Shown here in pieces: positions 1-56,780 of a stretch of DNA of 64,000 bases (its first letter is position 1; every line of letters starts with the position of its first letter). The translations under genes and the position numbers were made by a program. The notes under the pieces are model-generated. The model worked only from the letters and a program-made list of their open reading frames with translations, ran no database searches and was not told where the DNA came from. The stretch is from Balaenoptera acutorostrata (taxonomy: Eukaryota > Chordata > Mammalia > Artiodactyla > Balaenopteridae), in the NCBI RefSeq assembly GCF_949987535.1, contig NC_080082.1, positions 51,994,374 through 52,058,373 on the forward strand, written 5' to 3'.

Positions 1-390
1 CTGGGAAGTTTTGCCTTCAGAACCTTCCCCCGTTTTGTAGTGCAGCAGAACATCATTCAAGTGCCTCTTGAATCTGCGTCTCCCAGGCTAGGCTGCGGTC
101 CTAAGAAGCCCCAGTGGAATGCCTCTGCCTCAATCGGGTCTTCTTCTCTGTACCTCTGTTTCACCGTAGGCTTTGCCTGGTTTCTTCAAGAGAGGCACAC
201 AGGGAACAGAAATCTGTCAGCAGAGCCCCTACTGAGGAAAGGGCACTGGGTCCTGGGACGCCTCTGAGATGCATTCCTGATCGCCCCTGTTGCAGGAGGA
301 AGGTGTCAGGCAACCGGTGTGCCTGAAAGAGAGCTAGGGCCCTTGGGGAGGGAGCACCCTCCTCAGCCTAGCCCAGGTACTTGAGGGAGG

Positions 391-442
391 GTGGTGGTTT
401 GGGTGGTGGTGGTGGTCGTCGTGGTGGTGGGGTGTGTGTGTG
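391..442. repeat. (GGT)n / GT-rich microsatellite
   Basis: Impure GGT repeats running into GTGTGTG. Repeated in units 2 (about 6,472) and 3 (about 12,538) with the same length. Confidence 0.85.
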
Positions 443-849
443 GAAGAGATGGGTTAGGGGTGCTGGGGAGTGGAAAGGGCAGGGAGAAGGGGCTTCCGAC
501 ACGTTCCTGGAGAGCCCTGGAAGAGGCAGGGGCCCCGCCTAGTGCAGGCCCAGGGCATGGGCCTCCTCTGCCCAAGTCTAAGGGAGGGACCACCCTCAGG
601 GGCCAGTGGATTTTTGGCAACAGACCAGCCCTTGGAGCGGGACTCGGGGATCCCTGGCTGCAATTTCCACTCACCCCGAACCAGATCTGGGTCCACAGAC
701 GTCCCCGCTGTATCTATCTGCGCCTCACCACCAGGTCCAGCTGCTGCTGCTGCCGAGAACGCGACATAGGCCCAGATATCTGGGCTGTGGGTAATCTAAG
801 GAAAGAGGGTGCTGGCGCACCCTCCCTACTGTCCCCCAGGTGGTTGCCC

Positions 850-1400
850 CAGAACAATACCCCGGCCCGTCCCTCCAATGGAAACCACCTGCCCCAGCCT
901 TCAGTTGCAGACCCAAACCTCAGAAGGAGAGAACCCAAGAGAAAAATCAACATGTGACTGGAATTGTTGAAATCACCCTCTTGACCTCTCCTGAACCCGA
1001 GCCTCATTATACGCTCACTGGACTCCAGTTAGCCTGATGGGAAACACCTGACCACAGGGAAGGAAGGAAAAGCAGCAGATGGGACCACGGTTCCAGGGAG
1101 AACCCCGCCTCTTCCCAGAAAACCAATACCCATGCCTCCGCCTCCCGAACAGACCCTACCTTTAAACTTCCTGCCTTGTGAGCCCCCGGAGGAGAAGTTG
1201 ATTGGTGAGCCAAGCCCTCGACTCGGGCGTGTGCTGTTAGTATCTCAGCCTGCGTTTCCTTGATGGCAGTGGGAATCCAACAGGGAAAGAAACTTCCCCG
1301 CTGAGGCAGGGAGCTTCGGTTGGGCTGGGACCTAAGGGGAGGCGTCCATACGACCAATTCGGGAAGGCCGCCTCTCACCGTGGCCGCTCGGCCCTCCTGT
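850..1400. other. Insert within module A, origin unclear
   Basis: This stretch interrupts module A relative to B and C. It is less CpG-rich at its left and includes 'aaacttcctgccttgtgag' near 1,165. It could be another retroviral LTR fragment or unique sequence caught in the duplication. I cannot assign it, and no open frame in it is recognisable. Confidence 0.3.
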
Positions 1401-1440
1401 CGTCCTTCTGGCTGGTGGAGCTGAAGCCGGTCCTCCAGGC

Positions 1441-1450
1441 GCGCATGCGC
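1441..1450. promoter_or_regulatory. NRF1-type palindrome, unit 1
   Basis: The perfect palindrome GCGCATGCGC lies in a CpG-dense stretch (about 1,370-1,600), followed by 'aggcgac'. This is the core recognised by NRF1 in housekeeping CpG-island promoters. It is present in all three units. Occupancy would depend on methylation. Confidence 0.55.
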
Positions 1451-1526
1451 AGGCGACCAGGCCGCGAGGCCTGGCTGCGCCTCGGGCACGGTTGCTAAGC
1501 GACTTGCCTCTGAGGGGTGGGCGAGA

Positions 1527-1528
<2 letters not shown>

Positions 1529-1557
<29 letters not shown>
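1529..1557. repeat. (GGCT)n microsatellite
   Basis: GGCT repeats just after the NRF1 site. The repeat count differs between units (longest here, shortest in unit 2 near 7,612-7,634), as expected for replication slippage. Confidence 0.85.
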
Positions 1558-1755
1558 GGGCGCAGGCGCGGGCCGTGTCCGGTGCTCTAGGAAGGGCCTG
1601 GGGCCTAGGTCTTCCAGTGGTCCAGCAGATCGATAGACGGAAGGAAGGGTGGGCGGATCCACGGCTCGATGGAAGGTTGGAGGAATATACGGACGGACTG
1701 TTGGGGCCCCCGCAGAGTGGAGTGGAGGAAAGCCCTGCCGAGGGGCGGCAAGCGG

Positions 1756-1806
1756 AGGGGAGGGGAGGGGAGGGGAGGGGAGGGGAGGGGCGGGGAGGGG
1801 AGGGGA
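1756..1806. repeat. (GGGGA)n purine tract
   Basis: Pentanucleotide purine tract, much longer in unit 1 than in units 2 (about 7,833-7,864) and 3 (about 13,947-13,980). It is G-rich enough to form quadruplex-like structures. Its length change shifts the long minus-strand open frames, which is why those frames differ between units. Confidence 0.85.
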
Positions 1807-1859
1807 GAAGGAGGCGGGGAGAGGTTGCGAGCCTAGCGTGGAAGAATGGCGGAAAGAAG

Positions 1860-2600
1860 GGGTTTCCCACAGTTTCCTGCAAAGCAATGGAAGCGGCAGA
1901 GAACCCGCCCAGTGTGACGCCAGGGCACGGGCGGCCTCTGCCCATGTCTAGGGGAGGTACCGCTCTCTCTCCGGGTCAGTGGATTTCTCGGCGACGTGAC
2001 CGTCATTTTGAGCGGGGACATGGGGATCTTCATGCCGCTCGCCGCCTCACCAGGCACCAAGGCACCAGATTCCAAACCACCCCCCTTTCTCCATACAATG
2101 GACTCCATCACCTCCCACCTAGATCCGGATTTGGGTCCACTTGGCGTCTCGCCACCAGTTCCAGCCATCAGTGTGGGGGCAGTGGTTCGAAGATGTCGAC
2201 ACAGACTCTGAGATCCGGGACGTCAGTAACGTGAGGAGAGGAAGGCTGGCGCACCCTCCGTACTTCCCGCCATCTCCCTCTGTTCTCTCTCTCCTTTCCC
2301 GTCCCTACCCAGCTCACTCACCGGAGTTGAAGCCAGACCTCCAACTGCGTGAGCGCGCGGGGCACGGGCTGGGGGTGGGGTTGGGGGGGTGGAGTGGGAG
2401 GCTGACCTCACAATGACGAGCAGGTTTGCTAAGGGTTGGGTCTGTTAGGCTCTAGGGATCCGGAGCGCCCTTTGTCGCTTGGCAGGTACAGGTGAAAGCT
2501 GTGTCCGGTGCTCTCTGAAGGGCCTGTGGCCTGTGACTTCCAGTGGGCCAGTGGATGGATGGATGCCTGCACGGAAGGACGGATGGATGGGATGAAAGCA
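1860..2600. repeat. Internal module B of the macrosatellite unit
   Basis: Second copy of the module. 'gctggcgcac' recurs at 2,245, 1,434 bp after its place in module A. The second half follows directly ('gaagccagacctcc' near 2,327; 'tttgctaag' near 2,432; 'gaagggcctgtggcc' near 2,517). It ends in GGAT-rich simple sequence, as modules A and C do. Equivalents lie near 7,917-8,650 and 14,033-14,766. Confidence 0.75.
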
Positions 2601-2601
2601 G

Positions 2602-3045
2602 TGTTCCCATATTGGGGTACAGGGAAGTCATGCTGGCTCTGACATGATTTCTATGCTAACTACAACAGCCTGTTTTGTGGCCTCTTAAACATACGTTGTA
2701 CATGTGCTTTCATCGTTACAGAAAAGCGTGCATTGTCCAGAAATAAAGACGTCCTTTTGCAAGATACAAATAAAATGCCTCCCTTACCTGGACACCAGTG
2801 CCACTAGTCGTCCGATGAGAAGGCTCCTTCGGCAGGCGCCAAGGCCATACTGATTCGCGGTCTCTATGTGCTCATCTGTCTCTTTTGGAAACAAGAAGAC
2901 AAGGAATGGACCCCTGACACGATAGAGGTTCTCTGCCCTCAGATATAAAACTAGGCTGAAAGTCATGCTTCTCCAGAGCAGTTCCTCCGACCCCTGTGAG
3001 AGGCTGTCTCCTGCGCTCGAGTCCTCAGTTTGGCTCCAATAACTC
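2602..3045 (+). mobile_element. LTR-like stretch inside the unit (ERV1-type, tentative)
   Basis: This AT-richer stretch separates modules B and C. It starts with 'tgttcc', carries a TATA-like 'gatataaaact' at 2,942-2,952, and then runs into 'ctgtgagaggctgtctcctg' and 'gtttggctccaataa', phrases I associate with R/U5 of mammalian class I endogenous retroviral LTRs. The family is judged from memory, with no search done. No retroviral coding region is attached, so it would be a solitary LTR. Copies are near 8,651-9,093 and 14,767-15,210. If correct, each unit carries an LTR-derived promoter reading rightward. Confidence 0.4.
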
Positions 3046-3698
3046 GGGTGGGGGCGGGGGGGGGAGAAGTTGGGGGCTAATCGTGAAGACCTGTGCGGAG
3101 TAGGGCCTTGCCTCACATCCCTGCGAGGCACCGGGAGAGGCAGAGGCAGGGACCCCCGTCTCACCCGCCACCCGAAACCAGTGTGGCACCAGGGCATGGG
3201 CCTCCTCTGCCCACGTCTAGGGGAGCTACCACTTTCGGGGTCAGTGGATTTTCTGGTGACACGACCACAGTTCACAGTTCGAGCCGGGACTCTGGGATGT
3301 TCCTCGCCCCCGCCTCACCCGATGACATCCCACACCCTCCTCCCATTTGACACCATTCCCACCCATGCCGATCCAGATTTGGATCCACAGAGGTACCCGG
3401 CGTGCCTTGGTCTGGCCACCAGCTTCGGCAGCCACTGGCGGAGATGGTGGCACAGACCCAGAGATCTAGGATGTCCAGAACCTGAGCACCGGAGGGCTGG
3501 CGCACCCTCCCTACATCCCTCGCTGCCCTCCGTCCTCCTCTCTCCCCTCCCTGGGCTCTGACAGCCAGCCTTCTACTGGTGGAAGCCTGCCGTCCAACCA
3601 GGCGAGCGCGGACAATCGCTTTGGTTGCCCTGGGTTTCCCCTTTGTTGCCCTGCCGGGTTACTCAGCAAAAGGGGGCGGGGCTCTCCGTGATGCGGGC

Positions 3699-3712
3699 GC
3701 GCCCTCTGGCGG
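3699..3712 (-). promoter_or_regulatory. CTCF-like core, unit 1
   Basis: Plus-strand GCGCCCTCTGGCGG reads CCGCCAGAGGGCGC on the minus strand, a close match to the CTCF core. It lies 20-30 bp from a GC box ('gggggcgggg', about 3,672) within a CpG-rich stretch. One site occurs per unit in the same orientation. CTCF sites in human macrosatellites DXZ4 and D4Z4 are the relevant precedent. Confidence 0.6.
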
Positions 3713-3785
3713 CTGGCCGGGCTAGGGGCAGGCGCCGCCGGCGGCCCCCGTGCCTTTGGAAGCCCGGGCCCCCATCCTCCAGTGC

Positions 3786-3910
3786 GTCCAGCACATGGAT
3801 GGATGCAAGGATGAATGAGCGGATGGAAGGACGCAAGGAAGGGAGGAAGGGAGGATGGGAGGGAGGGAGGGAGGGAGGAAGAAAGGGAGGGAGGAAGGAA
3901 GAAGGAAGGC
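3786..3910. repeat. GGAT/GGGA-rich simple repeat
   Basis: Imperfect GGAT, GGAA and GGGA repeats end module C. Unit 3 has an extra 'gacg' near 15,995-16,000 relative to units 1 and 2. Confidence 0.8.
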
Positions 3911-3929
3911 TACATAAATGGATAGTTGC

Positions 3930-5700
3930 GGAGTGCAGAGTGGAATAAGGCCAGGCCGGGCCAGGCTGACCAAGCAGGATCAGGAGCCTAGTGGTGGTAT
4001 CCCTTGCTCAGGTCAATCTTCCGTGTGTGCCTGGGACTGTCCCGGAAGGGGGACTGCCCTGTGAGCTGGACAGGGGACTGACTGTGGGCTTCTGGGGGGC
4101 TTTGCTCCCTCGTGGGCTTCAGCGCCTGCAGCCAGAGCCAGAGCCAGAGCCCGAGCCCAGGCCCAAGGAACTGCCGTGCCCGTGGAGGGATGGGGCTTGT
4201 CTGAGGAGCCTGGGACTCCCTGCAGTCCCCATTTCCCCCCACTCACCACCACCCCCTCCGTGACAAGGCGGCTCCGTGGCTCTGTCTGGCTGTGTGGCTC
4301 AGTGGGATTCTGTTTTCCTTCCTTATCGCTTTTCCTGGCTTTTCTTCAAATGTGCCTGACTTGCCATGCCCTGGGAACAGCACGTGGAAGGAAGCCCCTC
4401 TGCATCCTGAGAGGCACCCTTCCACACACAAAAACACAAGGAATCTCTATGAGGATCTCATGATACACTTGTAGGAAAGATGCCAAAAGTCGTGCTCATG
4501 ATGCGAATGCCCCAAATCCCACCCCCACCCGAGCCCCTTTCCCCCAGCGCTCAACTCACCCAACCCGACCACAGCGCCATGATCTGGAAGAGGAAAGTCC
4601 CTTGGGCAAGGCATGATCCACTCGACTACAACCTTCTGGAAAATTCACCACCACCGATCCACTTCCAGTTGAGCTGTGTGTTTTGGCCTACCAGCACTTC
4701 ATTTGCTAGCTTCCAGTCTTCTTGCTGGGATGTAGGGACCCCGGGATGGGATGGGGGGGTGGGGGTGGGGCTATCCTCTGCTGTTGGAAAGTGCTCTCTC
4801 TCGGTGTTTGGGGGTTGCTCACCCTGTCTGCAAGCTTCTGAGAGCATGGGTTGGGGCTCAGCACATCTCCTCCTGTGGTCCTGGATAGGAACTTCTTCAT
4901 CGTGACCCCCTCTGGGGGTTCTCCTTGTGGTCCAAAGCACGGCTTGGGGGCATTATCAGCCTTGCAATCTCCAAACACCGCCTCAGAGGTGCACCCTCTG
5001 CCTCCCTCCTTCCTGGCCGCATCCCGATTCCACACCTGTCTGACTTGCTCTTTCTCTTCTCTGTGCTTGTGTGTGCTCTTCCGTCTTTTCCATGATTCTC
5101 TCCTCCTCCTCCTCTGCAGTACACGCGTTCCATGGCACTGGGTTCGCTTTTCCTTCTTAAACCCCTTTTGGCTCCGGTCAGTGCTTCTGTTCTTGGGAAG
5201 TCTTGGCCATCCCCTATTTCCATTGCTTTGCTTTGTTCTGTTTCTCACCTCATCAAGGACATTCCATTCCCGGTCCAGACTGGGCATTTCCCTTCTGTGT
5301 CTTTCACCTAGGATGGAATGTCTGTTCCTATTTCTTTCAGCATGATCTGCATCCCAGGAAATGCACCACACTCCCCGTTGTTTTCTGATGAGTTTTGGCA
5401 GACTTGCCTGGAACTGGGTTGCTGCCACCACCAGAACCTTGAGCGCTGGAGGGCGCGGAACGAGAAAGCCTTTGAAAAAACGGAGAATGAAAATCACTGG
5501 TTCTTTTGAGAAGAGCTAGAGCCCTGTCGTGATGATCACCACGATGGGGGTGGCAATGGACTGACACGGAGATTTGCAGTGAGTGCCCGCCTCCCTCCCT
5601 CACCCCACCCATGCCCACCGGGGTACGTGCCTGCGTTGGGACTCAAACACAGCTGCCGTCAAGGTCCAGACCCCAGGTACCCCACCCCCAAGTTCTCCTG
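3930..5700. other. Non-modular right part of the unit, no gene recognised
   Basis: This part contains a short 'ccagag' repeat near 4,133-4,160 and a G-rich tract near 4,751. Open frames of 164 codons (4,851-5,345, plus) and 263 codons (4,706-5,497, minus) overlap one another and are identical in unit 2. Their translations are low-complexity (proline-, arginine- or phenylalanine-rich) without any domain I recognise. Recent duplication alone explains their conservation. Confidence 0.6.
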
Positions 5701-5736
5701 ACCCTTTGCCCTAAGACACACACCGACACACAAACA

Positions 5737-5760
5737 CAGAGACAGACAGACAGACAGACA

Positions 5761-5791
<31 letters not shown>
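5737..5791. repeat. (CAGA)n(CA)n microsatellite, unit 1
   Basis: CAGA repeats followed by about 30 bases of CA. The matching tract in unit 2 (11,785-11,857) has about 56 bases of CA. Unit 3 is truncated before this site. Confidence 0.9.
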
Positions 5792-5793
<2 letters not shown>

Positions 5794-7521
5794 TCTCTCT
5801 CACTCTCTCTCCCTCTCAGACACACACACGGCGCCTTGCCCAGAATCATACTCGGACAGGCATACCTGCCAACACACCTGGCTCTTACTACGCTGTTGGA
5901 AGCCTGTCTTTTCTAGCTTCTCTAACATCTGCTAGCTGCCACAAGTGTGGTCTCAAAAGTTCCCCTCTTGCACCTCTGTAGTCATTTTGGACCCCAACCA
6001 AGGCTTGCTTCACAAGCACCCTTACTTTGGAGCAGTTCCAATCCGAATTCTTGACACACAACTCATGGAACTAACTATGGCCTGGGAAGTTTTGCCTTCA
6101 GAACCTTCCCCCGTTTTGTAGTGCAGCAGAACATCATTCAAGTGCCTCTTGAATCTGCGTCTCCCAGGCTAGGCTGCGGTCCTAAGAAGCCCCAGTGGAA
6201 TGCCTCTGCCTCAATCGGGTCTTCTTCTCTGTACCTCTGTTTCACCGTAGGCTTTGCCTGGTTTCTTCAAGAGAGGCACACAGGGAACAGAAATCTGTCA
6301 GCAGAGCCCCTACTGAGGAAAGGGCACTGGGTCCTGGGACGCCTCTGAGATGCATTCCTGATCGCCCCTGTTGCAGGAGGAAGGTGTCAGGCAACCGGTG
6401 TGCCTGAAAGAGAGCTAGGGCCCTTGGGGAGGGAGCACCCTCCTCAGCCTAGCCCAGGTACTTGAGGGAGGGTGGTGGTTTGGGTGGTGGTGGTGGTCGT
6501 CGTGGTGGTGGGGTGTGTGTGTGGAAGAGATGGGTTAGGGGTGCTGGGGAGTGGAAAGGGCAGGGAGAAGGGGCTTCCGACACGTTCCTGGAGAGCCCTG
6601 GAAGAGGCAGGGGCCCCGCCTAGTGCAGGCCCAGGGCATGGGCCTCCTCTGCCCAAGTCTAAGGGAGGGACCACCCTCAGGGGCCAGTGGATTTTTGGCA
6701 ACAGACCAGCCCTTGGAGCGGGACTCGGGGATCCCTGGCTGCAATTTCCACTCACCCCGAACCAGATCTGGGTCCACAGACGTCCCCGCTGTATCTATCT
6801 GCGCCTCACCACCAGGTCCAGCTGCTGCTGCTGCCGAGAACGCGACATAGGCCCAGATATCTGGGCTGTGGGTAATCTAAGGAAAGAGGGTGCTGGCGCA
6901 CCCTCCCTACTGTCCCCCAGGTGGTTGCCCCAGAACAATACCCCGGCCCGTCCCTCCAATGGAAACCACCTGCCCCAGCCTTCAGTTGCAGACCCAAACC
7001 TCAGAAGGAGAGAACCCAAGAGAAAAATCAACATGTGACTGGAATTGTTGAAATCACCCTCTTGACCTCTCCTGAACCCGAGCCTCATTATACGCTCACT
7101 GGACTCCAGTTAGCCTGATGGGAAACACCTGACCACAGGGAAGGAAGGAAAAGCAGCAGATGGGACCACGGTTCCAGGGAGAACCCCGCCTCTTCCCAGA
7201 AAACCAATACCCATGCCTCCGCCTCCCGAACGGACCCTACCTTTAAACTTCCTGCCTTGTGAGCCCCCGGAGGAGAAGTTGATTGGTGAGCCAAGCCCTC
7301 GACTCGGGCGTGTGCTGTTAGTATCTCAGCCTGCGTTTCCTTGATGGCAGTGGGAATCCAACAGGGAAAGAAACTTCCCCGCTGAGGCAGGGAGCTTCGG
7401 TTGGGCTGGGACCTAAGGGGAGGCGTCCATACGACCAATTCGGGAAGGCCGCCTCTCACCGTGGCCGCTCGGCCCTCCTGTCGTCCTTCTGGCTGATGGA
7501 GCTGAAGCCGGTCCTCCAGGC

Positions 7522-7531
7522 GCGCATGCGC
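7522..7531. promoter_or_regulatory. NRF1-type palindrome, unit 2
   Basis: Same GCGCATGCGC core, exactly one period (6,081 bp) from the unit 1 site, with identical flanks. Confidence 0.55.
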
Positions 7532-9742
7532 AGGCGACCAGGCCGCGAGGCCTGGCTGCGCCTCGGGCACGGTTGCTAAGCGACTTGCCTCTGAGGGGTG
7601 GGCGAGACGTTGGCTGGCTGGCTGGCTGGCTGGCGGGCGCAGGCGCGGGCCGTGTCCGGTGCTCTAGGAAGGGCCTGGGGCCTAGGTCTTCCAGTGGTCC
7701 AGCAGATCGATAGACGGAAGGAAGGGTGGGCGGATCCACGGCTCGATGGAAGGTTGGAGGAATATACGGACGGACTGTTGGGGCCCCCGCAGAGTGGAGT
7801 GGAGGAAAGCCCTGCCGAGGGGCGGCAAGCGGAGGGGAGGGGAGGGGAGCGGAGGGGAGGGGAGAAGGAGGCGGGGAGAGGTTGCGAGCCTAGCGTGGAA
7901 GAATGGCGGAAAGAAGGGGTTTCCCACAGTTTCCTGCAAAGCAATGGAAGCGGCAGAGAACCCGCCCAGTGTGACGCCAGGGCACGGGCGGCCTCTGCCC
8001 ATGTCTAGGGGAGGGACCGCTCTCTCTCCGGGTCAGTGGATTTCTCGGCGACGTGACCGTCATTTTGAGCGGGGACATGGGGATCTTCATGCCGCTCGCC
8101 GCCTCACCAGGCACCAGATTCCAAACCACCCCCCTTTCTCCATACAATGGACTCCATCACCTCCCACCTAGATCCGGATTTGGGTCCACTTGGCGTCTCG
8201 CCACCAGTTCCAGCCATCAGTGTGGGGGCAGTGGTTCGAAGATGTCGACACAGACTCTGAGATCCGGGACGTCAGTAACGTGAGGAGAGGAAGGCTGGCG
8301 CACCCTCCGTACTTCCCGCCATCTCCCTCTGTTCTCTCTCTCCTTTCCCGTCCCTACCCAGCTCACTCACCGGAGTTGAAGCCAGACCTCCAACTGCGTG
8401 AGCACGCGGGGCACGGGCTGGGGGTGGGGTTGGGGGGGTGGAGTGGGAGGCTGACCTCACAATGACGAGCAGGTTTGCTAAGGGTTGGGTCTGTTAGGCT
8501 CTAGGGATCCGGAGCGCCCTTTGTCGCTTGGCAGGTACAGGTGAAAGCTGTGTCCGGTGCTCTCTGAAGGGCCTGTGGCCTGTGACTTCCAGTGGGCCAG
8601 TGGATGGATGGATGCCTGCACGGAAGGACGGATGGATGGGATGAAAGCAGTGTTCCCATATTGGGGTACAGGGAAGTCATGCTGGCTCTGACATGATTTC
8701 TATGCTAACTACAACAGCCTGTTTTGTGGCCTCTTAAACATACGTTGTACATGTGCTTTCATCGTTACAGAAAAGCGTGCATTGTCCAGAAATAAAGACG
8801 TCCTTTTGCAAGATACAAATAAAATGCCTCCCTTACCTGGACACCAGTGCCACTAGTCGTCTGATGAGAAGGTTCCTTCGGCAGGCGCCAAGGCCATACT
8901 GATTCGCGGTCTCTATGTGCTCATCTGTCTCTTTTGGAAACAAGAAGACAAGGAATGGACCCCTGACACGATAGAGGTTCTCTGCCCTCAGATATAAAAC
9001 TAGGCTGAAAGTCATGCTTCTCCAGAGCAGTTCCTCCGACCCCTGTGAGAGGCTGTCTCCTGCGCTCGAGTCCTCAGTTTGGCTCCAATAACTCGGGTGG
9101 GGGGGGGGAGAAGTTGGGGGCTAATCGTGAAGACCTGTGCGGAGTAGGGCCTTGCCTCACATCCCTGCGAGGCACCGGGAGAGGCAGAGGCAGGGACCCC
9201 CGTCTCACCCGCCACCCGAAACCAGTGTGGCACCAGGGCATGGGCCTCCTCTGCCCACGTCTAGGGGAGCTACCACTTTCGGGGTCAGTGGATTTTCTGG
9301 TGACACGACTACAGTTCACAGTTCGAGCCGGGACTCTGGGATTTTCCTCGCCCCCGCCTCACCCGATGACATCCCACACCCTCCTCCCATTTGACACCAT
9401 TCCCACCCATGCCGATCCAGATTTGGATCCACAGAGGTACCCGGCGTGCCTTGGTCTGGCCACCAGCTTCGGCAGCCACTGGCGGAGATGGTGGCACAGA
9501 CCCAGAGATCTAGGATGTCCAGAACCTGAGCACCGGAGGGCTGGCGCACCCTCCCTACATCCCTCGCTGCCCTCCGTCCTCCTCTCTCCCCTCCCTGGGC
9601 TCTGACAGCCAGCCTTCTACTGGTGGAAGCCTGCCGTCCAACCAGGCGAGCGCGGACAATCGCCTTGGTTGCCCCGGGTTTCCCCTTTGTTGCCCTGCCG
9701 GGTTACTCAGCAAAAGGGGGCGGGGCTCTCCGTGATGCGGGC

Positions 9743-9756
9743 GCGCCCTCTGGCGG
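9743..9756 (-). promoter_or_regulatory. CTCF-like core, unit 2
   Basis: Identical core and flanks to the unit 1 site. Confidence 0.6.
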
Positions 9757-11784
9757 CTGGCCGGGCTAGGGGCAGGCGCCGCCGGCGGCCCCCGTGCCTT
9801 TGGAAGCCCGGGCCCCCATCCTCCAGTGCGTCCAGCACATGGATGGATGCAAGGATGAATGAGCGGATGGAAGGACGCAAGGAAGGGAGGAAGGGAGGAT
9901 GGGAGGGAGGGAGGGAGGGAGGAAGAAAGGGAGGGAGGAAGGAAGAAGGAAGGCTACATAAATGGATAGTTGCGGAGTGCAGAGTGGAATAAGGCCAGGC
10001 CGGGCCAGGCTGACCAAGCAGGATCAGGAGCCTAGTGGTGGTATCCCTTGCTCAGGTCAATCTTCCGTGTGTGCCTGGGACTGTCCCGGAAGGGGGACTG
10101 CCCTGTGAGCTGGACAGGGGACTGACTGTGGGCTTCTGGGGGGCTTTGCTCCCTCGTGGGCTTCAGCGCCTGCAGCCAGAGCCAGAGCCAGAGCCCGAGC
10201 CCAGGCCCAAGGAACTGCCGTGCCCGTGGAGGGATGGGGCTTGTCTGAGGAGCCTGGGACTCCCTGCAGTCCCCATTTCCCCCCACTCACCACCACCCCC
10301 TCCGTGACAAGGCGGCTCCGTGGCTCTGTCTGGCTGTGTGGCTCAGTGGGATTCTGTTTTCCTTCCTTATCGCTTTTCCTGGCTTTTCTTCAAATGTGCC
10401 TGACTTGCCATGCCCTGGGAACAGCACGTGGAAGGAAGCCCCTCTGCATCCTGAGAGGCACCCTTCCACACACAAAAACACAAGGAATCTCTATGAGGAT
10501 CTCATGATACACTTGTAGGAAAGATGCCAAAAGTCGTGCTCATGATGCGAATGCCCCAAATCCCACCCCCACCCGAGCCCCTTTCCCCCAGCGCTCAACT
10601 CACCCAACCCGACCACAGCGCCATGATCTGGAAGAGGAAAGTCCCTTGGGCAAGGCATGATCCACTCGACTACAACCTTCTGGAAAATTCACCACCACCG
10701 ATCCACTTCCAGTTGAGCTGTGTGTTTTGGCCTACCAGCACTTCATCTGCTAGCTTCCAGTCTTCTTGCTGGGATGTAGGGACCCCGGGATGGGATGGGG
10801 GGGTGGGGGTGGGGCTATCCTCTGCTGTTGGAAAGTGCTCTCTCTGGGTGTTTGGGGGTTGCTCACCCTGTCTGCAAGCTTCTGAGAGCATGGGTTGGGG
10901 CTCAGCACATCTCCTCCTGTGGTCCTGGATAGGAACTTCTTCATCGTGACCCCCTCTGGGGGTTCTCCTTGTGGTCCAAAGCACGGCTTGGGGGCATTAT
11001 CAGCCTTGCAATCTCCAAACACCGCCTCAGAGGTGCACCCTCTGCCTCCCTCCTTCCTGGCCGCATCCCGATTCCACACCTGTCTGACTTGCTCTTTCTC
11101 TTCTCTGTGCTTGTGTGTGCTCTTCCGTCTTTTCCATGATTCTCTCCTCCTCCTCCTCTGCAGTACACGCGTTCCATGGCACTGGGTTCGCTTTTCCTTC
11201 TTAAACCCCTTTTGGCTCCGGTCAGTGCTTCTGTTCTTGGGAAGTCTTGGCCATCCCCTATTTCCATTGCTTTGCTTTGTTCTGTTTCTCACCTCATCAA
11301 GGACATTCCATTCCCGGTCCAGACTGGGCATTTCCCTTCTGTGTCTTTCACCTAGGATGGAATGTCTGTTCCTATTTCTTTCAGCATGATCTGCATCCCA
11401 GGAAATGCACCACACTCCCCGTTGTTTTCTGATGAGTTTTGGCAGACTTGCCTGGAACTGGGTTGCTGCCACCACCAGAACCTTGAGCGCTGGAGGGCGC
11501 GGAACGAGAAAGCCTTTGAAAAAACGGAGAATGAAAATCACTGGTTCTTTTGAGAAGAGCTAGAGCCCTGTCGTGATGATCACCACGATGGGGGTGGCAA
11601 TGGACTGACACGGAGATTTGCAGTGAGTGCCCGCCTCCCTCCCTCACCCCACCCATGCCCACCGGGGTACGTGCCTGCGTTGGGACTCAAACACAGCTGC
11701 CGTCAAGGTCCAGACCCCAGGTACCCCACCCCCAAGTTCTCCTGACCCTTTGCCCTAAGACACACACCGACACACAAACACAGA

Positions 11785-11800
11785 GACAGACAGACAGACA

Positions 11801-11857
<57 letters not shown>
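11785..11857. repeat. (CAGA)n(CA)n microsatellite, unit 2
   Basis: Expanded version of the tract at 5,737; the extra CA pairs partly offset losses elsewhere in the unit. Confidence 0.9.
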
Positions 11858-11859
<2 letters not shown>

Positions 11860-13633
11860 TCTCTCTCACTCTCTCTCCCTCTCAGACACACACACGGCGC
11901 CTTGCCCAGAATCATACTCGGACAGGCATACCTGCCAACACACCTGGCTCTTACTACGCTGTTGGAAGCCTGTCTTTTCTAGCTTCTCTAACATCTGCTA
12001 GCTGCCACAAGTGTGGTCTCAAAAGTTCCCCTCTTGCACCTCTGTAGTCATTTTGGACCCCAACCAAGGCTTGCTTCACAAGCACCCTTACTTTGGAGCA
12101 GTTCCAATCCGAATTCTTGACACACAACTCATGGAACTAACTATGGCCTGGGAAGTTTTGCCTTCAGAACCTTCCCCCGTTTTGTAGTGCAGCAGAACAT
12201 CATTCAAGTGCCTCTTGAATCTGCGTCTCCCAGGCTAGGCTGCGGTCCTAAGAAGCCCCAGTGGAATGCCTCTGCCTCAATCGGGTCTTCTTCTCTGTAC
12301 CTCTGTTTCACCGTAGGCTTTGCCTGGTTTCTTCAAGAGAGGCACACAGGGAACAGAAATCTGTCAGCAGAGCCCCTACTGAGGAAAGGGCACTGGGTCC
12401 TGGGACGCCTCTGAGATGCATTCCTGATCGCCCCTGTTGCAGGAGGAAGGTGTCAGGCAACCGGTGTGCCTGAAAGAGAGCTAGGGCCCTTGGGGAGGGA
12501 GCACCCTCCTCAGCCTAGCCCAGGTACTTGAGGGAGGGTGGTGGTTTGGGTGGTGGTGGTGGTCGTCGTGGTGGTGGGGTGTGTGTGTGGAAGAGATGGG
12601 TTAGGGGTGCTGGGGAGTGGAAAGGGCAGGGAGAAGGGGCTTCCGACACGTTCCTGGAGAGCCCTGGAAGAGGCAGGGGCCCCGCCTAGTGCAGGCCCAG
12701 GGCATGGGCCTCCTCTGCCCAAGTCTAAGGGAGGGACCACCCTCAGGGGCCAGTGGATTTTTGGCAACAGACCAGCCCTTGGAGCGGGACTCGGGGATCT
12801 TCATCGCGCCCCACCTCGCCGCATTTCACTCTGCACCCCTCTCTCACTGGCTGCAATTTCCACTCACCCCGAACCAGATCTGGGTCCACAGACGTCCCCG
12901 CTGTATCTATCTGCGCCTCACCACCAGGTCCAGCTGCTGCTGCTGCCGAGAACGCGACATAGGCCCAGATATCTGGGCTGTGGGTAATCTAAGGAAAGAG
13001 GGTGCTGGCGCACCCTCCCTACTGTCCCCCAGGTGGTTGCCCCAGAACAATACCCCGGCCCGTCCCTCCAATGGAAACCACCTGCCCCAGCCTTCAGTTG
13101 CAGACCCAAACCTCAGAAGGAGAGAACCCAAGAGAAAAATCAACATGTGACTGGAATTGTTGAAATCACCCTCTTGACCTCTCCTGAACCCGAGCCTCAT
13201 TATACGCTCACTGGACTCCAGTTAGCCTGATGGGAAACACCTGACCACAGGGAAGGAAGGAAAAGCAGCAGATGGGACCACGGTTCCAGGGAGAACCCCG
13301 CCTCTTCCCAGAAAACCAATACCCATGCCTCCGCCTCCCGAACAGACCCTACCTTTAAACTTCCTGCCTTGTGAGCCCCCGGAGGAGAAGTTGATTGGTG
13401 AGCCAAGCCCTCGACTCGGGCGTGTGCTGTTAGTATCTCAGCCTGCGTTTCCTTGATGGCAGTGGGAATCCAACAGGGAAAGAAACTTCCCCGCTGAGGC
13501 AGGGAGCTTCGGTTGGGCTGGGACCTAAGGGGAGGCGTCCATACGACCAATTCGGGAAGGCCGCCTCTCACCGTGGCCGCTCGGCCCTCCTGTCGTCCTT
13601 CTGGCTGGTGGAGCTGAAGCCGGTCCTCCAGGC

Positions 13634-13643
13634 GCGCATGCGC
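13634..13643. promoter_or_regulatory. NRF1-type palindrome, unit 3
   Basis: Same core and flanks as in units 1 and 2. Confidence 0.55.
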
Positions 13644-15862
13644 AGGCGACCAGGCCGCGAGGCCTGGCTGCGCCTCGGGCACGGTTGCTAAGCGACTTGC
13701 CTCTGAGGGGTGGGCGAGACGTTGGCTGGCTGGCTGGCTGGCTGGCTGGCGGGCGCAGGCGCGGGCCGTGTCCGGTGCTCTAGGAAGGGCCTGGGGCCTA
13801 GGTCTTCCAGTGGTCCAGCAGATCGATAGACGGAAGGAAGGGTGGGCGGATCCACGGCTCGATGGAAGGTTGGAGGAATATACGGACGGACTGTTGGGGC
13901 CCCCGCAGAGTGGAGTGGAGGAAAGCCCTGCCGAGGGGCGGCAAGCGGAGGGGAGGGGAGGGGAGGGGCGGGGAGGGGAGAAGGAGGCGGGGAGAGGTTG
14001 CGAGCCTAGCGTGGAAGAATGGCGGAAAGAAGGGGTTTCCCACAGTTTCCTGCAAAGCAATGGAAGCGGCAGAGAACCCGCCCAGTGTGACGCCAGGGCA
14101 CGGGCGGCCTCTGCCCATGTCTAGGGGAGGTACCGCTCTCTCTCCGGGTCAGTGGATTTCTCGGCGACGTGACCGTCATTTTGAGCGGGGACATGGGGAT
14201 CTTCATGCCGCTCGCCGCCTCACCAGGCACCAGATTCCAAACCACCCCCCTTTCTCCATACAATGGACTCCATCACCTCCCACCTAGATCCGGATTTGGG
14301 TCCACTTGGCGTCTCGCCACCAGTTCCAGCCATCAGTGTGGGGGCAGTGGTTCGAAGATGTCGACACAGACTCTGAGATCCGGGACGTCAGTAACGTGAG
14401 GAGAGGAAGGCTGGCGCACCCTCCGTACTTCCCGCTATCTCCCTCTGTTCTCTCTCTCCTTTCCCGTCCCTACCCAGCTCACTCACCGGAGTTGAAGCCA
14501 GACCTCCAACTGCGTGAGCGCGCGGGGCACGGGCTGGGGGTGGGGTTGGGGGGGTGGAGTGGGAGGCTGACCTCACAATGACGAGCAGGTTTGCTAAGGG
14601 TTGGGTCTGTTAGGCTCTAGGGATCCGGAGCGCCCTTTGTCGCTTGGCAGGTACAGGTGAAAGCTGTGTCCGGTGCTCTCTGAAGGGCCTGTGGCCTGTG
14701 ACTTCCAGTGGGCCAGTGGATGGATGGATGCCTGCACGGAAGGACGGATGGATGGGATGAAAGCAGTGTTCCCATATTGGGGTACAGGGAAGTCATGCTG
14801 GCTCTGACATGATTTCTATGCTAACTACAACAGCCTGTTTTGTGGCCTCTTAAACATACGTTGTACATGTGCTTTCATCGTTACAGAAAAGCGTGCATTG
14901 TCCAGAAATAAAGACGTCCTTTTGCAAGATACAAATAAAATGCCTCCCTTACCTGGACACCAGTGCCACTAGTCGTCCGATGAGAAGGCTCCTTCGGCAG
15001 GCGCCAAGGCCATACTGATTCGCGGTCTCTATGTGCTCATCTGTCTCTTTTGGAAACAAGAAGACAAGGAATGGACCCCTGACACGATAGAGGTTCTCTG
15101 CCCTCAGATATAAAACTAGGCTGAAAGTCATGCTTCTCCAGAGCAGTTCCTCCGACCCCTGTGAGAGGCTGTCTCCTGCGCTCGAGTCCTCAGTTTGGCT
15201 CCAATAACTCGGGTGGGGGCGGGGGGGGAGAAGTTGGGGGCTAATCGTGAAGACCTGTGCGGAGTAGGGCCTTGCCTCACATCCCTGCGAGGCACCGGGA
15301 GAGGCAGAGGCAGGGACCCCCGTCTCACCCGCCACCCGAAACCAGTGTGGCACCAGGGCATGGGCCTCCTCTGCCCACGTCTAGGGGAGCTACCACTTTC
15401 GGGGTCAGTGGATTTTCTGGTGACACGACCACAGTTCACAGTTCGAGCCGGGACTCTGGGATGTTCCTCGCCCCCGCCTCACCCGATGACATCCCACACC
15501 CTCCTCCCATTTGACACCATTCCCACCCATGCCGATCCAGATTTGGATCCACAGAGGTACCCGGCGTGCCTTGGTCTGGCCACCAGCTTCGGCAGCCACT
15601 GGCGGAGATGGTGGCACAGACCCAGAGATCTAGGATGTCCAGAACCTGAGCACCGGAGGGCTGGCGCACCCTCCCTACATCCCTCGCTGCCCTCCGTCCT
15701 CCTCTCTCCCCTCCCTGGGCTCTGACAGCCAGCCTTCTACTGGTGGAAGCCTGCCGTCCAACCAGGCGAGCGCGGACAATCGCCTTGGTTGCCCTGGGTT
15801 TCCCCTTTGTTGCCCTGCCGGGTTACTCAGCAAAAGGGGGCGGGGCTCTCCGTGATGCGGGC

Positions 15863-15876
15863 GCGCCCTCTGGCGG
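15863..15876 (-). promoter_or_regulatory. CTCF-like core, unit 3
   Basis: Identical core and flanks to the sites in units 1 and 2. Confidence 0.6.
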
Positions 15877-17489
15877 CTGGCCGGGCTAGGGGCAGGCGCC
15901 GCCGGCGGCCCCCGTGCCTTTGGAAGCCCGGGCCCCCATCCTCCAGTGCGTCCAGCACATGGATGGATGCAAGGATGAATGAGCGGATGGAAGGACGGAC
16001 GCAAGGAAGGGAGGAAGGGAGGATGGGAGGGAGGGAGGGAGGGAGGAAGAAAGGGAGGGAGGAAGGAAGAAGGAAGGCTACATAAATGGATAGTTGCGGA
16101 GTGCAGAGTGGAATAAGGCCAGGCCGGGCCAGGCTGACCAAGCAGGATCAGGAGCCTAGTGGTGGTATCCCTTGCTCAGGTCAATCTTCCGTGTGTGCCT
16201 GGGACTGTCCCGGAAGGGGGACTGCCCTGTGAGCTGGACAGGGGACTGACTGTGGGCTTCTGGGGGGCTTTGCTCCCTCGTGGGCTTCAGCGCCTGCAGC
16301 CAGAGCCAGAGCCAGAGCCCGAGCCCAGGCCCAAGGAACTGCCGTGCCCGTGGAGGGATGGGGCTTGTCTGAGGAGCCTGGGACTCCCTGCAGTCCCCAT
16401 TTCCCCCCACTCACCACCACCCCCTCCGTGACAAGGCGGCTCCGTGGCTCTGTCTGGCTGTGTGGCTCAGTGGGATTCTGTTTTCCTTCCTTATCGCTTT
16501 TCCTGGCTTTTCTTCAAATGTGCCTGACTTGCCATGCCCTGGGAACAGCACGTGGAAGGAAGCCCCTCTGCATCCTGAGAGGCACCCTTCCACACACAAA
16601 AACACAAGGAATCTCTATGAGGATCTCATGATACACTTGTAGGAAAGATGCCAAAAGTCATGCTCATGATGCGAATGCCCCAAATCCCACCCCCACCCGA
16701 GCCCCTTTCCCCCAGCGCTCAACTCACCTAACCCGACCACAGCGCCATGATCTGGAAGAGGAAAGTCCCTTGGGCAAGGCATGATCCACTCGACTACAAC
16801 CTTCTGGAAAATTCACCACCACCGATCCACTTCCAGTTGAGCTGTGTGTTTTGGCCTACCAGCACTTCATTTGCTAGCTTCCAGTCTTCTTGCTGGGATG
16901 TAGGGACCCCGGGATGGGATGGGGGGGGTGGGGGTGGGGCTATCCTCTGCTGTTGGAAAGTGCTCTCTCTGGGTGTTTGGGGGTTGCTCACCCTGTCTGC
17001 AAGCTTCTGAGAGCATGGGTTGGGGCTCAGCACATCTCCTCCTGTGGTCCTGGATAGGAACTTCTTCATCGTGACCCCCTCTGGGGGTTCTCCTTGTGGT
17101 CCAAAGCACGGCTTGGGGGCATTATCAGCCTTGCAATCTCCAAACACCGCCTCAGAGGTGCACCCTCTGCCTCCCTCCTTCCTGGCCGCATCCCGATTCC
17201 ACACCTGTCTGACTTGCTCTTTCTCTTCTCTGTGCTTGTGTGTGCTCTTCCGTCTTTTCCATGATTCTCTCCTCCTCCTCCTCTGCAGTACACGCGTTCC
17301 ATGGCACTGGGTTCGCTTTTCCTTCTTAAACCCCTTTTGGCTCCGGTCAGTGCTTCTGTTCTTGGGAAGTCTTGGCCATCCACTCGTTCCATTGCCTTGC
17401 TTTGTTCTCTTTTTTACTTCATGAAGGACATTCCATTTCCAGTTCATACTGGGCATTTCCCTTCTTTGTCTTTCACCTGAGCCTAGGCT

Positions 17490-17603
17490 CAGAAGTTGTG
17501 TCTTAGTTGCTCCGCAGCATGTTGGATCTTCCCAACCAGGGCCGAATCCATGTCCGCTGCATTGGCAGGCGGATTCTTTACCACTGTGCTACGAGTGAAG
17601 TCC
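17490..17603 (-). mobile_element. CHR-type SINE remnant at the array edge
   Basis: Antisense SINE head ('gttgctccgcagcatg', 'attggcaggcggattcttta', 'gaagtcc') immediately outside the macrosatellite. It is diverged and has no clear target-site duplication, so it could mark the old breakpoint. Confidence 0.75.
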
Positions 17604-23807: not shown

Positions 23808-23952
23808 GGGACTTCCCTGGTGGTCCAGCAGTTAAGACTCCACTCTCCCAATGCAGAGGGCCTGGGTTCGATCCCTGGTCAGGGAACTAGATCCCGCATG
23901 CTGCAACGAAGACCTGGCACAGCCAAATAAATAAATAAAATATTTTTTTAAA
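23808..23952 (+). mobile_element. CHR-type SINE
   Basis: Sense head 'acttccctggtggtccagc', 'gggttcgatccctggtcagg', a short body ('acctggcacagcc') and an (AAAT)n tail. Confidence 0.88.
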
Positions 23953-30049: not shown

Positions 30050-30740
30050 ATTAACTTTGAAAAAAGATTTCAACATTTGTATTTGATGTGAAATCTCAAG
30101 GGGAGTTAAGTAAATAAAAACTCAGTATCTCATTTGAAAAGAACACATGGCTGTGCATAAGAGGGAGTGAACCACAGTGGGGGAGACATTTGTAATCTTT
30201 AGTGGCATTGTAATTACAGAATCACCAGGCATAGATAGTCACCTTTTATTATTTATACATTTTATATACCTATATTTTATATGGGAGTGGTGTGTTAGAG
30301 CTGGGCAGTAATGTCATGCCAGGGCCAACCATGCACATCTCTCTCTAACTCTATGTTCAATGAATTATATCAATACATTGCTATTGGCCATGGTAGGAGT
30401 ATTTACACTGTGAACACTGGTAAACACTACAAAAGAGGGGTGTCTCTCTGTGTGTGTGTAGAGCTGGTTGTTAAATACTTAACAGCACTTCACTTCATAA
30501 AATCATGGTTTTTTGAGCTCTCCTTTCAGTATTTCAAATTTTATAACTGTTCTCTGACCCATCTCTACTGGGGAAGATTTGGAAATTTCTATTAATTGTA
30601 CTATAGAACACTTCCTTTTTCTTGCCATGGAATGGTAATATTTTTTTCTCATTTAGTTTAGATTTGGATTCAAGTTATATAATAATCAGCCATAGAAAAA
30701 CGTTTATATATGGAAAACATTCATCTCTTTTTCTGTATCA
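30050..30740. other. Sequence upstream of the zinc-finger relic, paralogous to 63.6-64.0 kb
   Basis: 'aacacatggctgtgca' and 'agagctgggcagta' with their surroundings align in order with 'agcacacgtggctatgca' and 'agagctggctgata' at 63,750-63,915. This is probably the end of the intron before a zinc-finger exon. A pyrimidine-rich stretch and 'ctgtatcag' at 30,733-30,741 may be the old splice acceptor. Confidence 0.6.
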
Positions 30741-30741
30741 G

Positions 30742-32940
<2,199 letters not shown>

Positions 32941-41489: not shown

Positions 41490-42400
41490 TTTTTATGAGA
41501 AAAAGTAAAATAACGTCTGGAAGGCTACATACACTAAAATCAAAATGCTGTGCATGCTAAGGTTAGCTACTGTATGCCTGAAATATATGGCAGAAGAGGT
41601 TGATCGCATTTTTAGTTAAACTTTATATCCTTTTGAAATGTTAATCTATGCATGGATTGCATATTTAAAATATGTTGTAATGCTGATAACTGAAATATGG
41701 GCATCCTTTGATGAGAACTTTACATTTCCCATTTGCTGAACTTACTCATGAATCTAAATATATATATGTGTAATGCAACCTTAATTCTTCTGATAGCCCA
41801 GAAGAATCTTCCTCCTTTCAGATTTTGAGCCTGATTTATCTTCACTGCCCAAACAACTGAGAAGCGAAGTATTTTTCAATGAGATGTCATGACCAGGCAT
41901 TACGAATTAAAAGATGTTCTCAACCTGTGGGCTTTTAAATGCAGTCAAGCTCGCCACTTCACAATAGAGCAGAGAGGGGTGAAAAGAATCGCTTAACAAC
42001 AGTCAATTTCTGGTGGACATAATATTGTAAAATGTAAATAAGGTATTGCTGTTTGTTCTAGTTTTCAGAGAACTGCAATCAGTATTCTTGAAAAAGGGAC
42101 CAAAACTCATTCTCCCTTTTTCTACAATGAGAATATACTATAAAGTCTCACTTTATCCAGGTTTTCTCACCTGGAAACACGTCTTTGCTAATCAACAGTA
42201 TAATGTTATACACCTTGTGTAAACTCAGAGGCTTCAGCTCTAAAACCGGAGTAGTCAGCACCTGTGGCATTGCGAGTGGAATGAGCGTTTCAGGGAAGGG
42301 ATACATTCACCTGCACACTCATAACACACGACACAAACACGCACAGAGTTTGGTTGGATCATGAACCCACCTCAAGAGCTCGCACTGGATGGCCCTCGGG
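41490..42400. other. No feature recognised
   Basis: AT-rich sequence leading to the CpG island. No repeat or open frame that I can name. Confidence 0.4.
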
Positions 42401-42439
42401 GTCATATTACTGATTCAACTGGGCAGACCCTTCACACGC

Positions 42440-42960
42440 AGGCCTGAAGCCTCGGAAAGGAAGAACTCCGCAGGCCCCTCCTCACAATTCTCTGGTCCGG
42501 CCCCACCCTCATTCGCCGCCTCCTGGCCCTGGGAACCACTGAACCCGCCTTCCGCCTCAGGTTGGGCCTCCGGGCGTTGGGCGACCAGCGCTGCGCAGGC
42601 GCAGTCTGGCGCTCACTCCCAGAAGTCTCCGGGCCCGGTCCGGCGGTTGCTTTGATTCAGGATTTTAACGACCTAGAATCTCACGTTCCACAGACGGCGA
42701 GGTGACTTTGAACTCCGGTTCTTTTTCCGTGTCCCGTGTTGCGAACTGCGCGTGAGTGGCACCCGTCCGAGGAAGAATCCGGCTTGGGTCGCCGCGAAGA
42801 CGACTGCGCAGACGTAGCTGGAGCCCACGAGGGACAGCCAGTGGCGGTGAGACTGGGATTGCGGGAGGCGCTCAAAGCGTGGACGGTCGGAGCGCAGCCA
42901 CGCGAGTCCGCCCGCCCCCTCGGGGCTGTGGGCGCTTGAGCAGCGGGGAGGGTAATTTTA
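42440..42960 (+). promoter_or_regulatory. CpG-rich promoter and first exon of the KRAB-ZNF gene
   Basis: This is the only CpG-rich stretch outside the macrosatellite. It carries an NRF1-type site TGCGCAGGCGCA at 42,592-42,603, a TATA-less context and a good splice donor 'gtggcg|gtgaga' at 42,846/42,847. The layout (short non-coding first exon in a CpG island, then a long intron before a start-codon exon) is typical of KRAB-ZNF genes. The transcription start is not visible; the first exon may begin near 42,620-42,750. The link to the exons at 50.8 kb and beyond is inferred from order and strand. Confidence 0.65.

Positions 42961-50888: not shown

Positions 50889-56780
<5,892 letters not shown>

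What the first reader, a model, noticed from the sequence alone, without database searches (positions are those of the whole stretch)
1..17481. A 6.07-kb GC-rich macrosatellite with near-identical units
Almost three tandem units are visible, with periods of 6,081 and 6,066 bp. Near-identity implies recent amplification or ongoing homogenisation. The unit carries CpG-rich modules, an NRF1-type site and a CTCF-like core and lacks a recognisable gene. It does not look like D4Z4 (no homeodomain found), the rDNA spacer, or the short satellites known to me from cetaceans. The array continues left of the window, so copy number is unknown.
Basis: partly seen in the sequence, partly recalled or inferred. 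Interest (0 to 1): 0.78.

Follow-up and report, generated by a model that had tools for sequence, protein, structure and literature searches.

The report
Whale 6-kb macrosatellite in zinc-finger cluster
A baleen-whale-type genome carries a 148-kb stretch in which the same 6-kb, gene-less, GC-rich DNA unit is repeated about 25 times almost without change, at what looks like the chromosomal place where humans carry another large repeat (SST1), so it offers a second natural example of how such arrays arise and stay uniform.

Summary
Confirmed and enlarged. The window holds two complete units (6,081 and 6,066 bp) and a truncated third, ending at 17480. In the window's own genome the array runs gap-free for about 148.4 kb (C25:51,863,474-52,011,853): 23 complete units and two end fragments, one orientation, 0.17% mean divergence. 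A tail query found it only here and, diverged, in one inverted relic 0.66 Mb away; a module query agreed (40 of 80 candidates scored). No recognisable gene in 40 of 69 frames. The unit is three old ~0.7-kb modules (60-63% alike), a dispersed-repeat insert and a ~2.2-kb tail: apparently a late amplification from a decayed small-monomer array. Relatives appear as predicted proteins in blue, gray and right whales. The array lies between CAPNS1 and PSMD8 exons in a KRAB zinc-finger cluster; by recalled human gene order this is the 19q13.12 interval that holds two inverted SST1 arrays. Sequence kinship to SST1 could not be settled. The NRF1 palindrome exceeds chance; the CTCF core is weak. Best reading: a non-coding macrosatellite homogenised by unequal exchange and gene conversion, with a CpG-island promoter per unit; the regulatory role is only inferred. 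New member of a known kind.

The parts
1..6081 (+). complete unit (number 22 of 23 complete units; the array continues left for another 130.9 kb outside the window)
6082..12147 (+). complete unit (number 23, last complete one)
12148..17480 (+). right-end unit, truncated at unit position ~5309
459..1637 (+). module A (with insert 838-1361) of the unit
   Evidence: internal alignment
838..1361 (+). 524-bp insert in module A; a query from unit position 1019 on gave 66-85% matches on other contigs, mostly to unit 1040-1408, so it contains an old interspersed repeat (LTR nature only a guess)
1829..2563 (+). module B
3073..3802 (+). module C
3850..6081 (+). about 2.2-kb tail of the unit; parts recur diverged in the relic locus
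991..2480 (.). CpG island (500 bp, GC 55%, O/E 0.65 criteria) over modules A and B; equivalents 7061-8450 and 13191-14660
1440..1451 (.). NRF1 palindrome CGCGCATGCGCA; equivalents 7521-7532 and 13633-13644
3699..3712 (-). CTCF-like core; equivalents 9743-9756 and 15863-15876
   Evidence: about 8% by chance per simulated unit
12801..12846 (+). 46-bp segment present in 13 of 24 testable copies, absent from both complete units in the window; modules B and C have sequence aligned to it, so its absence is probably the derived state
17382..17480 (+). decayed right edge: 14 substitutions in 95 positions against 9 in 5182 before it (unit 3 against unit 1)
17481..17603 (-). tRNA-derived SINE, apparently truncated, abutting the array (family recalled as cetartiodactyl CHR)
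42151..43270 (+). CpG island of the right-hand flank, possibly the promoter of a KRAB zinc-finger gene pointing away from the array
   Evidence: role inferred
53792..53914 (+). KRAB box exon
   Evidence: query consensus recalled
30709..32100 (+). C2H2 finger array, frame-disrupted

Best explanation
A non-coding macrosatellite of a cetacean, at one locus as far as searched. SHOWN: 25 head-to-tail copies (23 complete) of a 6.07-kb unit; 0.17% mean divergence; locally related neighbours; decayed edges; a diverged inverted relic of the same modules 0.66 Mb away; KRAB and C2H2 sequence around it; CAPNS1 and PSMD8 exons on either side. INFERRED: an old array of ~0.9-kb CpG-rich monomers decayed to 60-70% identity; one segment of it (three modules, an interspersed-repeat insert, the tail) was then tandemly amplified by unequal exchange, and exchange plus gene conversion still homogenise the interior while the ends decay. 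INFERRED, weaker (about 0.4): each unit is a CpG-island promoter (NRF1), at least partly unmethylated and transcribed in the germ line, and the array works as a repeat-dose-dependent chromatin domain between two KRAB zinc-finger promoters that point away from it. The confidence below is for the array, its homogenisation and its two-step origin, not for that last step.
For: Array extent and uniformity. Adjacent units more alike than in random order (5 of 5,000 permutations as low) and a lag-2 excess (62 of 5,000), which fits one- and two-unit block duplication; copies 7 and 9 have no substitution between them. Edge decay: 14/95 against 9/5,182 on the right; diverged unit fragments just outside the left edge. 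Two-step origin: modules A, B, C are no closer to each other (60-63%) than to the relic modules, and the tree is star-like. Locus: a tail query gave 25 array hits plus one relic hit, 26 of 26 candidates scored. Synteny anchors. CpG island in 3 of 3 units in the window and 236-245 CpG in each of 23 complete units. NRF1 palindrome beyond chance and perfect at the same place in relic modules r5 and r7.
Against: No expression, methylation or chromatin data were available. The NRF1 site is intact in only 3 of 10 aligned modules, and its 10-column windows rank 468-530 of 696 for conservation, so selection on it is not shown. The CTCF core is expected in about 8% of such units and is not found in the relic. 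CpG columns vary about four times as often as others (14 of 486 against 39 of 5,621), so some germ-line methylation is likely. The module C query had 80 candidates and only 40 were scored, the whole-unit query was not scored, and a query with a relic module did not complete, so further relics may exist. A strict pattern finds only two short open finger frames in the 264 kb around the array, which weakens the idea that the array serves working zinc-finger genes, although finger exons may lie outside.
Confidence: 0.8

Rival explanations
1. Neutral macrosatellite: amplification and homogenisation only, with no regulatory role; NRF1 and CTCF-like sites are passengers of a CpG-rich ancestor. It differs from the best explanation only in its last step.
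For: No module-wide constraint on the NRF1 windows, CTCF core near chance, disrupted zinc-finger neighbours, faster change at CpG.
Against: CpG island kept in the homogenised units; NRF1 palindrome perfect in 24 of 24 array copies (not independent) and in two relic modules 62-63% identical to module A.
Confidence: 0.45
2. Deep orthologue of human SST1: the 19q13.12 zinc-finger cluster has carried a macrosatellite since the common ancestor of primates and whales, with sequence overturned by exchange.
For: Same interval between CAPNS1 and PSMD8 (their human positions recalled); second locus in inverted orientation 0.66 Mb away, as the two human arrays are inverted and about 1 Mb apart; both GC-rich, CpG-island-bearing and without a known gene.
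Against: Unit 6.07 kb against 2.4-2.5 kb; three of four human SST1 primers match no better than chance, and the fourth (1 of 200 simulations, 15 primers tried; a TAF11-Like control primer reached 3 of 200) lies in the insert that contains a dispersed repeat. The whale partner locus is a decayed relic of ~0.9-kb modules, not a second array.
Confidence: 0.2
3. Cetacean DXZ4, D4Z4/DUXC or ZAV.
For: All are multi-kilobase arrays; DXZ4-like repeats and DUXC arrays are reported for dolphin (passages); ZAV has a 5.3-kb unit, 60% GC, islands of 1.4 and ~0.7 kb beside a zinc-finger gene.
Against: The contig carries CAPNS1 and PSMD8 exons, so by recalled human order it matches 16q/19q, not X, 4q/10q or 9q32; no homeodomain in 40 of 69 frames; the 34-bp DXZ4 motif is not found in full, only a gapped match to its CTCF part; ZAV primers match at chance level.
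Confidence: 0.03
4. Assembly artefact (false tandem expansion of a single copy).
For: Assembled arrays can be wrong in copy number; no reads were available to check.
Against: Units carry distinct combinations of 53 variable columns and length variants, with no two copies identical; a right whale gene prediction joins unit positions ~1,109 and ~5,472 in the order expected across a unit boundary; two ENA-sourced contigs have about unit length, 6,253 and 5,942 bp.
Confidence: 0.03

Closest known systems
SST1 macrosatellite, human 19q13.12 (PMC3018141, section 8 read; passages)
   Same: GC-rich non-coding tandem array with a CpG island per unit; more than 99% identity within an array; inside a zinc-finger gene cluster; two loci in inverted orientation; same interval between CAPNS1 and PSMD8 (human gene positions recalled).
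   Different: Unit 6.07 kb not 2.4-2.5 kb, 58.6% GC not 64%; built of three modules plus insert and tail; the partner locus is a decayed relic; no convincing sequence match in the four primers available.
ZAV, human 9q32 (PMC3018141, section 12 read)
   Same: Similar unit size (5.3 kb), GC (60%), island sizes (1.4 and ~0.7 kb) and a zinc-finger neighbour transcribed away from the array.
   Different: Another chromosome region (by synteny, human order recalled); primers match at chance level.
DXZ4 (PMC3491370, PMC3218863, PMC8662614: passages seen)
   Same: GC-rich, near-identical multi-kilobase units, no obvious protein, CpG-rich promoter-like region.
   Different: X-linked beside PLS3; its 34-bp conserved motif is not present in full.
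Common cetacean satellite (PMC9659126: passages seen)
   Same: Cetacean tandem repeat.
   Different: Similar to the 3' part of L1 according to that review; its unit length near 1.6-1.75 kb is recalled. Sequence not compared.

Membership tests
Macrosatellite | units of 2 to more than 12 kb in tandem (PMC3218863, passage) | tested here: met
   6.05-6.13 kb, 23 complete copies
Macrosatellite | restricted to one or two genomic locations (same passage) | tested here: met
   tail query: 25 array hits and one relic, 26 of 26 candidates scored; module C query: the same two places, but only 40 of 80 candidates scored; the insert region has dispersed relatives
Macrosatellite | copy number varies between individuals | not testable with these tools
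   one assembly only
SST1 | location in the 19q13.12 zinc-finger cluster | tested here: met
   between CAPNS1 and PSMD8 exons on C25 (human order recalled); KRAB boxes and fingers around it
SST1 | 2.4-2.5-kb monomer | tested here: not met
   6.07-kb unit with ~0.7-kb modules
SST1 | sequence homology to SST1 | tested here: inconclusive
   only four primers available; one match at 1 of 200 simulations, in the insert
DXZ4 | X-linked, next to PLS3 | tested here: not met
   contig carries CAPNS1 and PSMD8; recalled PLS3 and AGTR2 give no hit in the window; the genome-wide AGTR2 search did not complete
DXZ4 | 34-bp motif from 25 mammals | tested here: not met
   best ungapped IUPAC match in the unit 26 of 34, against 28 in flanking DNA; only a gapped match to the CTCF part
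D4Z4/DUXC | double homeobox gene in the unit | tested here: not met
   no homeodomain in 40 of 69 frames scanned; recalled DUX4 homeodomains give no tblastn hit in the window
ZAV | next to ZFP37 at 9q32 | tested here: not met
   contig carries CAPNS1 and PSMD8; ZFP37 itself was not searched
rDNA or its spacer | rRNA genes in the unit | tested here: not met
   only Rfam hit at gathering threshold in the window is a tRNA match at 23814
Common cetacean satellite | similarity to the L1 3' end | not tested
   no L1 or satellite reference was compared

The most novel reading that the evidence does not exclude
One mammalian KRAB zinc-finger cluster (19q13.12) has hosted macrosatellite arrays in both primates and whales, either by deep descent with total sequence turnover or by repeated birth, which would mean that the cluster itself demands or breeds large CpG-rich arrays, perhaps as a germ-line chromatin boundary.
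Probability: 0.3. Interest if true: 0.8.

Novelty: new member of a known kind. Interest (0 to 1): 0.58.

Why it matters
Why macrosatellites exist is open. Here a birth sequence can be proposed from one chromosome: a relic of the small-monomer ancestor, a dispersed-repeat insertion, capture of three diverged modules and a tail, amplification, and edge decay. The shared interval with human SST1 gives a comparative test of whether zinc-finger clusters need or breed such arrays. If copy number proves variable, the array could also serve as a marker in whales.

Tried and rejected
DXZ4: a gapped 18-base match to the CTCF part of its motif (2 of 1,000 simulated units as good; 3 of 2,000 shuffled motifs) looked exciting, but the rest of the 34-bp motif is missing and the match lies in the module A insert; dropped. 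ZAV: attractive by size, islands and neighbour; dropped on synteny and primers. Gene array: no Pfam family reached its cut-off in 40 of 69 frames; the matches listed (Presenilin E 0.055, zf-Tnp_2 E 0.94, a procyclic acidic repeat protein E 0.0006 with 20 bits against a cut-off of 100) look like low-complexity noise. NRF1 constraint: I expected it to stand out among modules; it does not. YY1 and X-box sites: none with the patterns used. Viral contigs: no relatives in two scans. Unit age of 0.9-1.7 Myr at assumed rates is rough only, because exchange resets the clock. C2orf78, said to be at about 150 apparent copies in blue whale near a centromere (passage), was not compared directly.

In their listings I saw no description of this repeat; 'macrosatellite' with 'cetacean' gave 1 paper and with 'whale' 5. 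The word macrosatellite does not occur in the main text of the blue whale duplication paper (PMC10919930). Dfam and Repbase were not available, so a database entry cannot be excluded.
Full report
OBSERVATION. The tandem repeat is real. BLAST of the first 6,080 bases against the window returns 1-6080, 6082-12146 and 12148-17478 at 98-100% including gaps. Aligned, units 1 and 2 differ by 15 substitutions in 6,044 positions and a few length changes. Unit 3 differs from unit 1 by 9 substitutions in 5,182 positions and then by 14 in the last 95 before the array stops at about 17480. A SINE that looks truncated follows directly.

EXTENT. The window is C25:51,994,374-52,058,373 of a 2.77-Gb genome. 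Fetching 200 kb to the left shows that the array starts 130.9 kb left of the window, with no N inside it: a left fragment, 23 complete units of 6,050-6,129 bp and the right fragment, all in one orientation, about 148.4 kb in all. Mean divergence among the 23 complete units is 0.17% (maximum 0.33%) over 253 pairs. No two copies are identical once length changes count.

HOW UNIFORMITY IS KEPT. Neighbours are more alike than in random order (5 of 5,000 permutations as low), and units two apart are more alike than the mean of lags one and three (62 of 5,000). Copies 7 and 9 show no substitution between them. Variants are shuffled between copies; the 46-bp segment, to which modules B and C have aligned sequence, is present in 13 of 24 testable copies in mosaic fashion. 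The ends decay: 14 of 95 positions on the right, and on the left diverged pieces of the unit just outside the array (a piece of about unit 2559-3010 at window -135,109 to -134,639, 70% identical, and a short piece of about unit 1700-1800 next to the edge). This is the expected signature of unequal exchange and gene conversion in the interior. The mechanism itself is inference.

INTERNAL ANATOMY AND ORIGIN. The unit contains three ~0.7-kb modules, A, B and C, 62-66% identical in a three-way alignment, with a 524-bp insert in A. A query over part of the insert (unit 1019-1579) gave 41 matches: 24 array copies and 17 weaker ones, 66-85% identical, at 14 places on other contigs, so it contains an old interspersed repeat. 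A query from the tail (unit 4539-4699) hit the 25 array copies and one 75% copy on the minus strand at C25:51,200,097. The DNA there is a relic, about 8 kb long, of module copies plus pieces of the tail; seven relic modules were complete enough to align and shorter fragments were left out. Modules A, B and C are no closer to one another than to relic modules (A/B 0.63, A/C 0.60, B/C 0.62; to relic modules 0.54-0.72), and the tree is star-like, with no well-supported fork among its 7 inner branches. So a small-monomer array probably decayed first, and a segment with three modules and the tail was amplified much later.

SEQUENCE SIGNALS. A CpG island of 1.4-1.5 kb covers modules A and B in 3 of 3 window units, and each of the 23 complete units has 236-245 CpG. 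CpG columns vary about four times as often as other columns (14 of 486 against 39 of 5,621). The NRF1 palindrome was found in 0 of 2,000 simulated units and in 1 of 3,000 simulated islands with each of two local models. It is perfect in two relic modules as well, but across ten modules its position is not conserved above average. The CTCF core is in 25 of 25 copies, but about 8% of simulated units have one, 49 and 88 of 3,000 simulations of the module C stretch have one, and the relic has none. A shuffle of the whole, more AT-rich window gives a lower expectation (mean 0.14 for the window), but the three window sites are copies of one.

CODING. Of 69 stop-to-stop frames of at least 60 aa in a unit, 40 were scanned; no Pfam family reached its cut-off. 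Ten database proteins matched two of these frames, and the 4 that bear names are gene predictions: Balaenoptera musculus LOC118885468, Eschrichtius robustus J1605_004286 and J1605_004287, and a partial Eubalaena glacialis model called SAMD1-like (in one search only the 7,993 candidates sharing most words were scored). The right whale model joins unit position ~1,109 to ~5,472, the order expected across a unit boundary on the minus strand, which implies a tandem arrangement there too. Two hits come from ENA-sourced contigs of 6,253 and 5,942 bp, about one unit long. Two unnamed hits from a 2,242-bp contig match at 81-82% amino-acid identity, perhaps a toothed whale; the taxon is unknown. A third search with an alignment found the same six proteins. 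No named hit came from outside the baleen whales, but this search reaches only close relatives.

PLACE. KRAB boxes lie on both sides (window -148,300 on the minus strand and 53,792 on the plus strand), CpG islands at -140,679 to -139,420 and 42,151-43,270, and C2H2 fingers at several places. Open frames with two or more fingers are few in the 264 kb (2 frames, with 2 and 4 fingers, by a strict pattern). The single best CAPNS1 match was elsewhere, an uninterrupted 90% copy on C3, which I take for a retrocopy; an uninterrupted 72% relative lies at C25:29.8 Mb and fits CAPNS2 of 16q (recalled). In humans CAPNS1 and PSMD8 flank the 19q13.12 zinc-finger cluster (recalled), which holds two SST1 arrays about 1 Mb apart in inverted orientation, with 2 zinc-finger genes proximal, 16 between and 11 distal (PMC3018141, section 8). 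The whale array lies 1.4 Mb, and its relic 0.75 Mb, beyond CAPNS1, also inverted to one another.

VERDICT. A new macrosatellite of a known kind, found only at this locus and one relic by the searches that were answered. Its most interesting feature is the shared interval with SST1. Sequence kinship to SST1 is not shown: three of four primers match at chance level and the fourth match lies in the insert. Function is not shown. The best reading is a homogenised non-coding array whose units carry a CpG-island promoter and may form a chromatin boundary between zinc-finger promoters; a purely neutral array is about as likely.

Noticed in passing
window 24353-25108 (+): Open frame of 251 aa with Glyco_transf_7N/7C domains, resembling beta-1,4-galactosyltransferase 4 (resemblance recalled); one uninterrupted frame, so perhaps a retrocopy.
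   Followed up: partly
window 28639-29698 (-) and 30709-32100 (+): Two C2H2 zinc-finger arrays broken by frameshifts or stops beside the array.
   Followed up: partly
C25:51,199,595-51,207,870 (L025, L026): Relic array of ~0.9-kb modules with two separate remnants of the unit tail.
   Followed up: yes
window 838-1361 and other contigs (C13, C1, C27, C17, C22 and more): Dispersed relatives (66-85%) of part of the module A insert; the family was not identified.
   Followed up: partly
protein database, P0008 and P0010: Two proteins from a 2,242-bp unnamed contig are more distant relatives of the unit (81-82% amino-acid identity); near the right edge P0008 shares two residues with the decayed edge of unit 3 rather than with unit 1 (compared by eye).
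   Followed up: no
window 17481-64000: 24 matches to one tRNA-derived SINE seed, the seed itself included.
   Followed up: no
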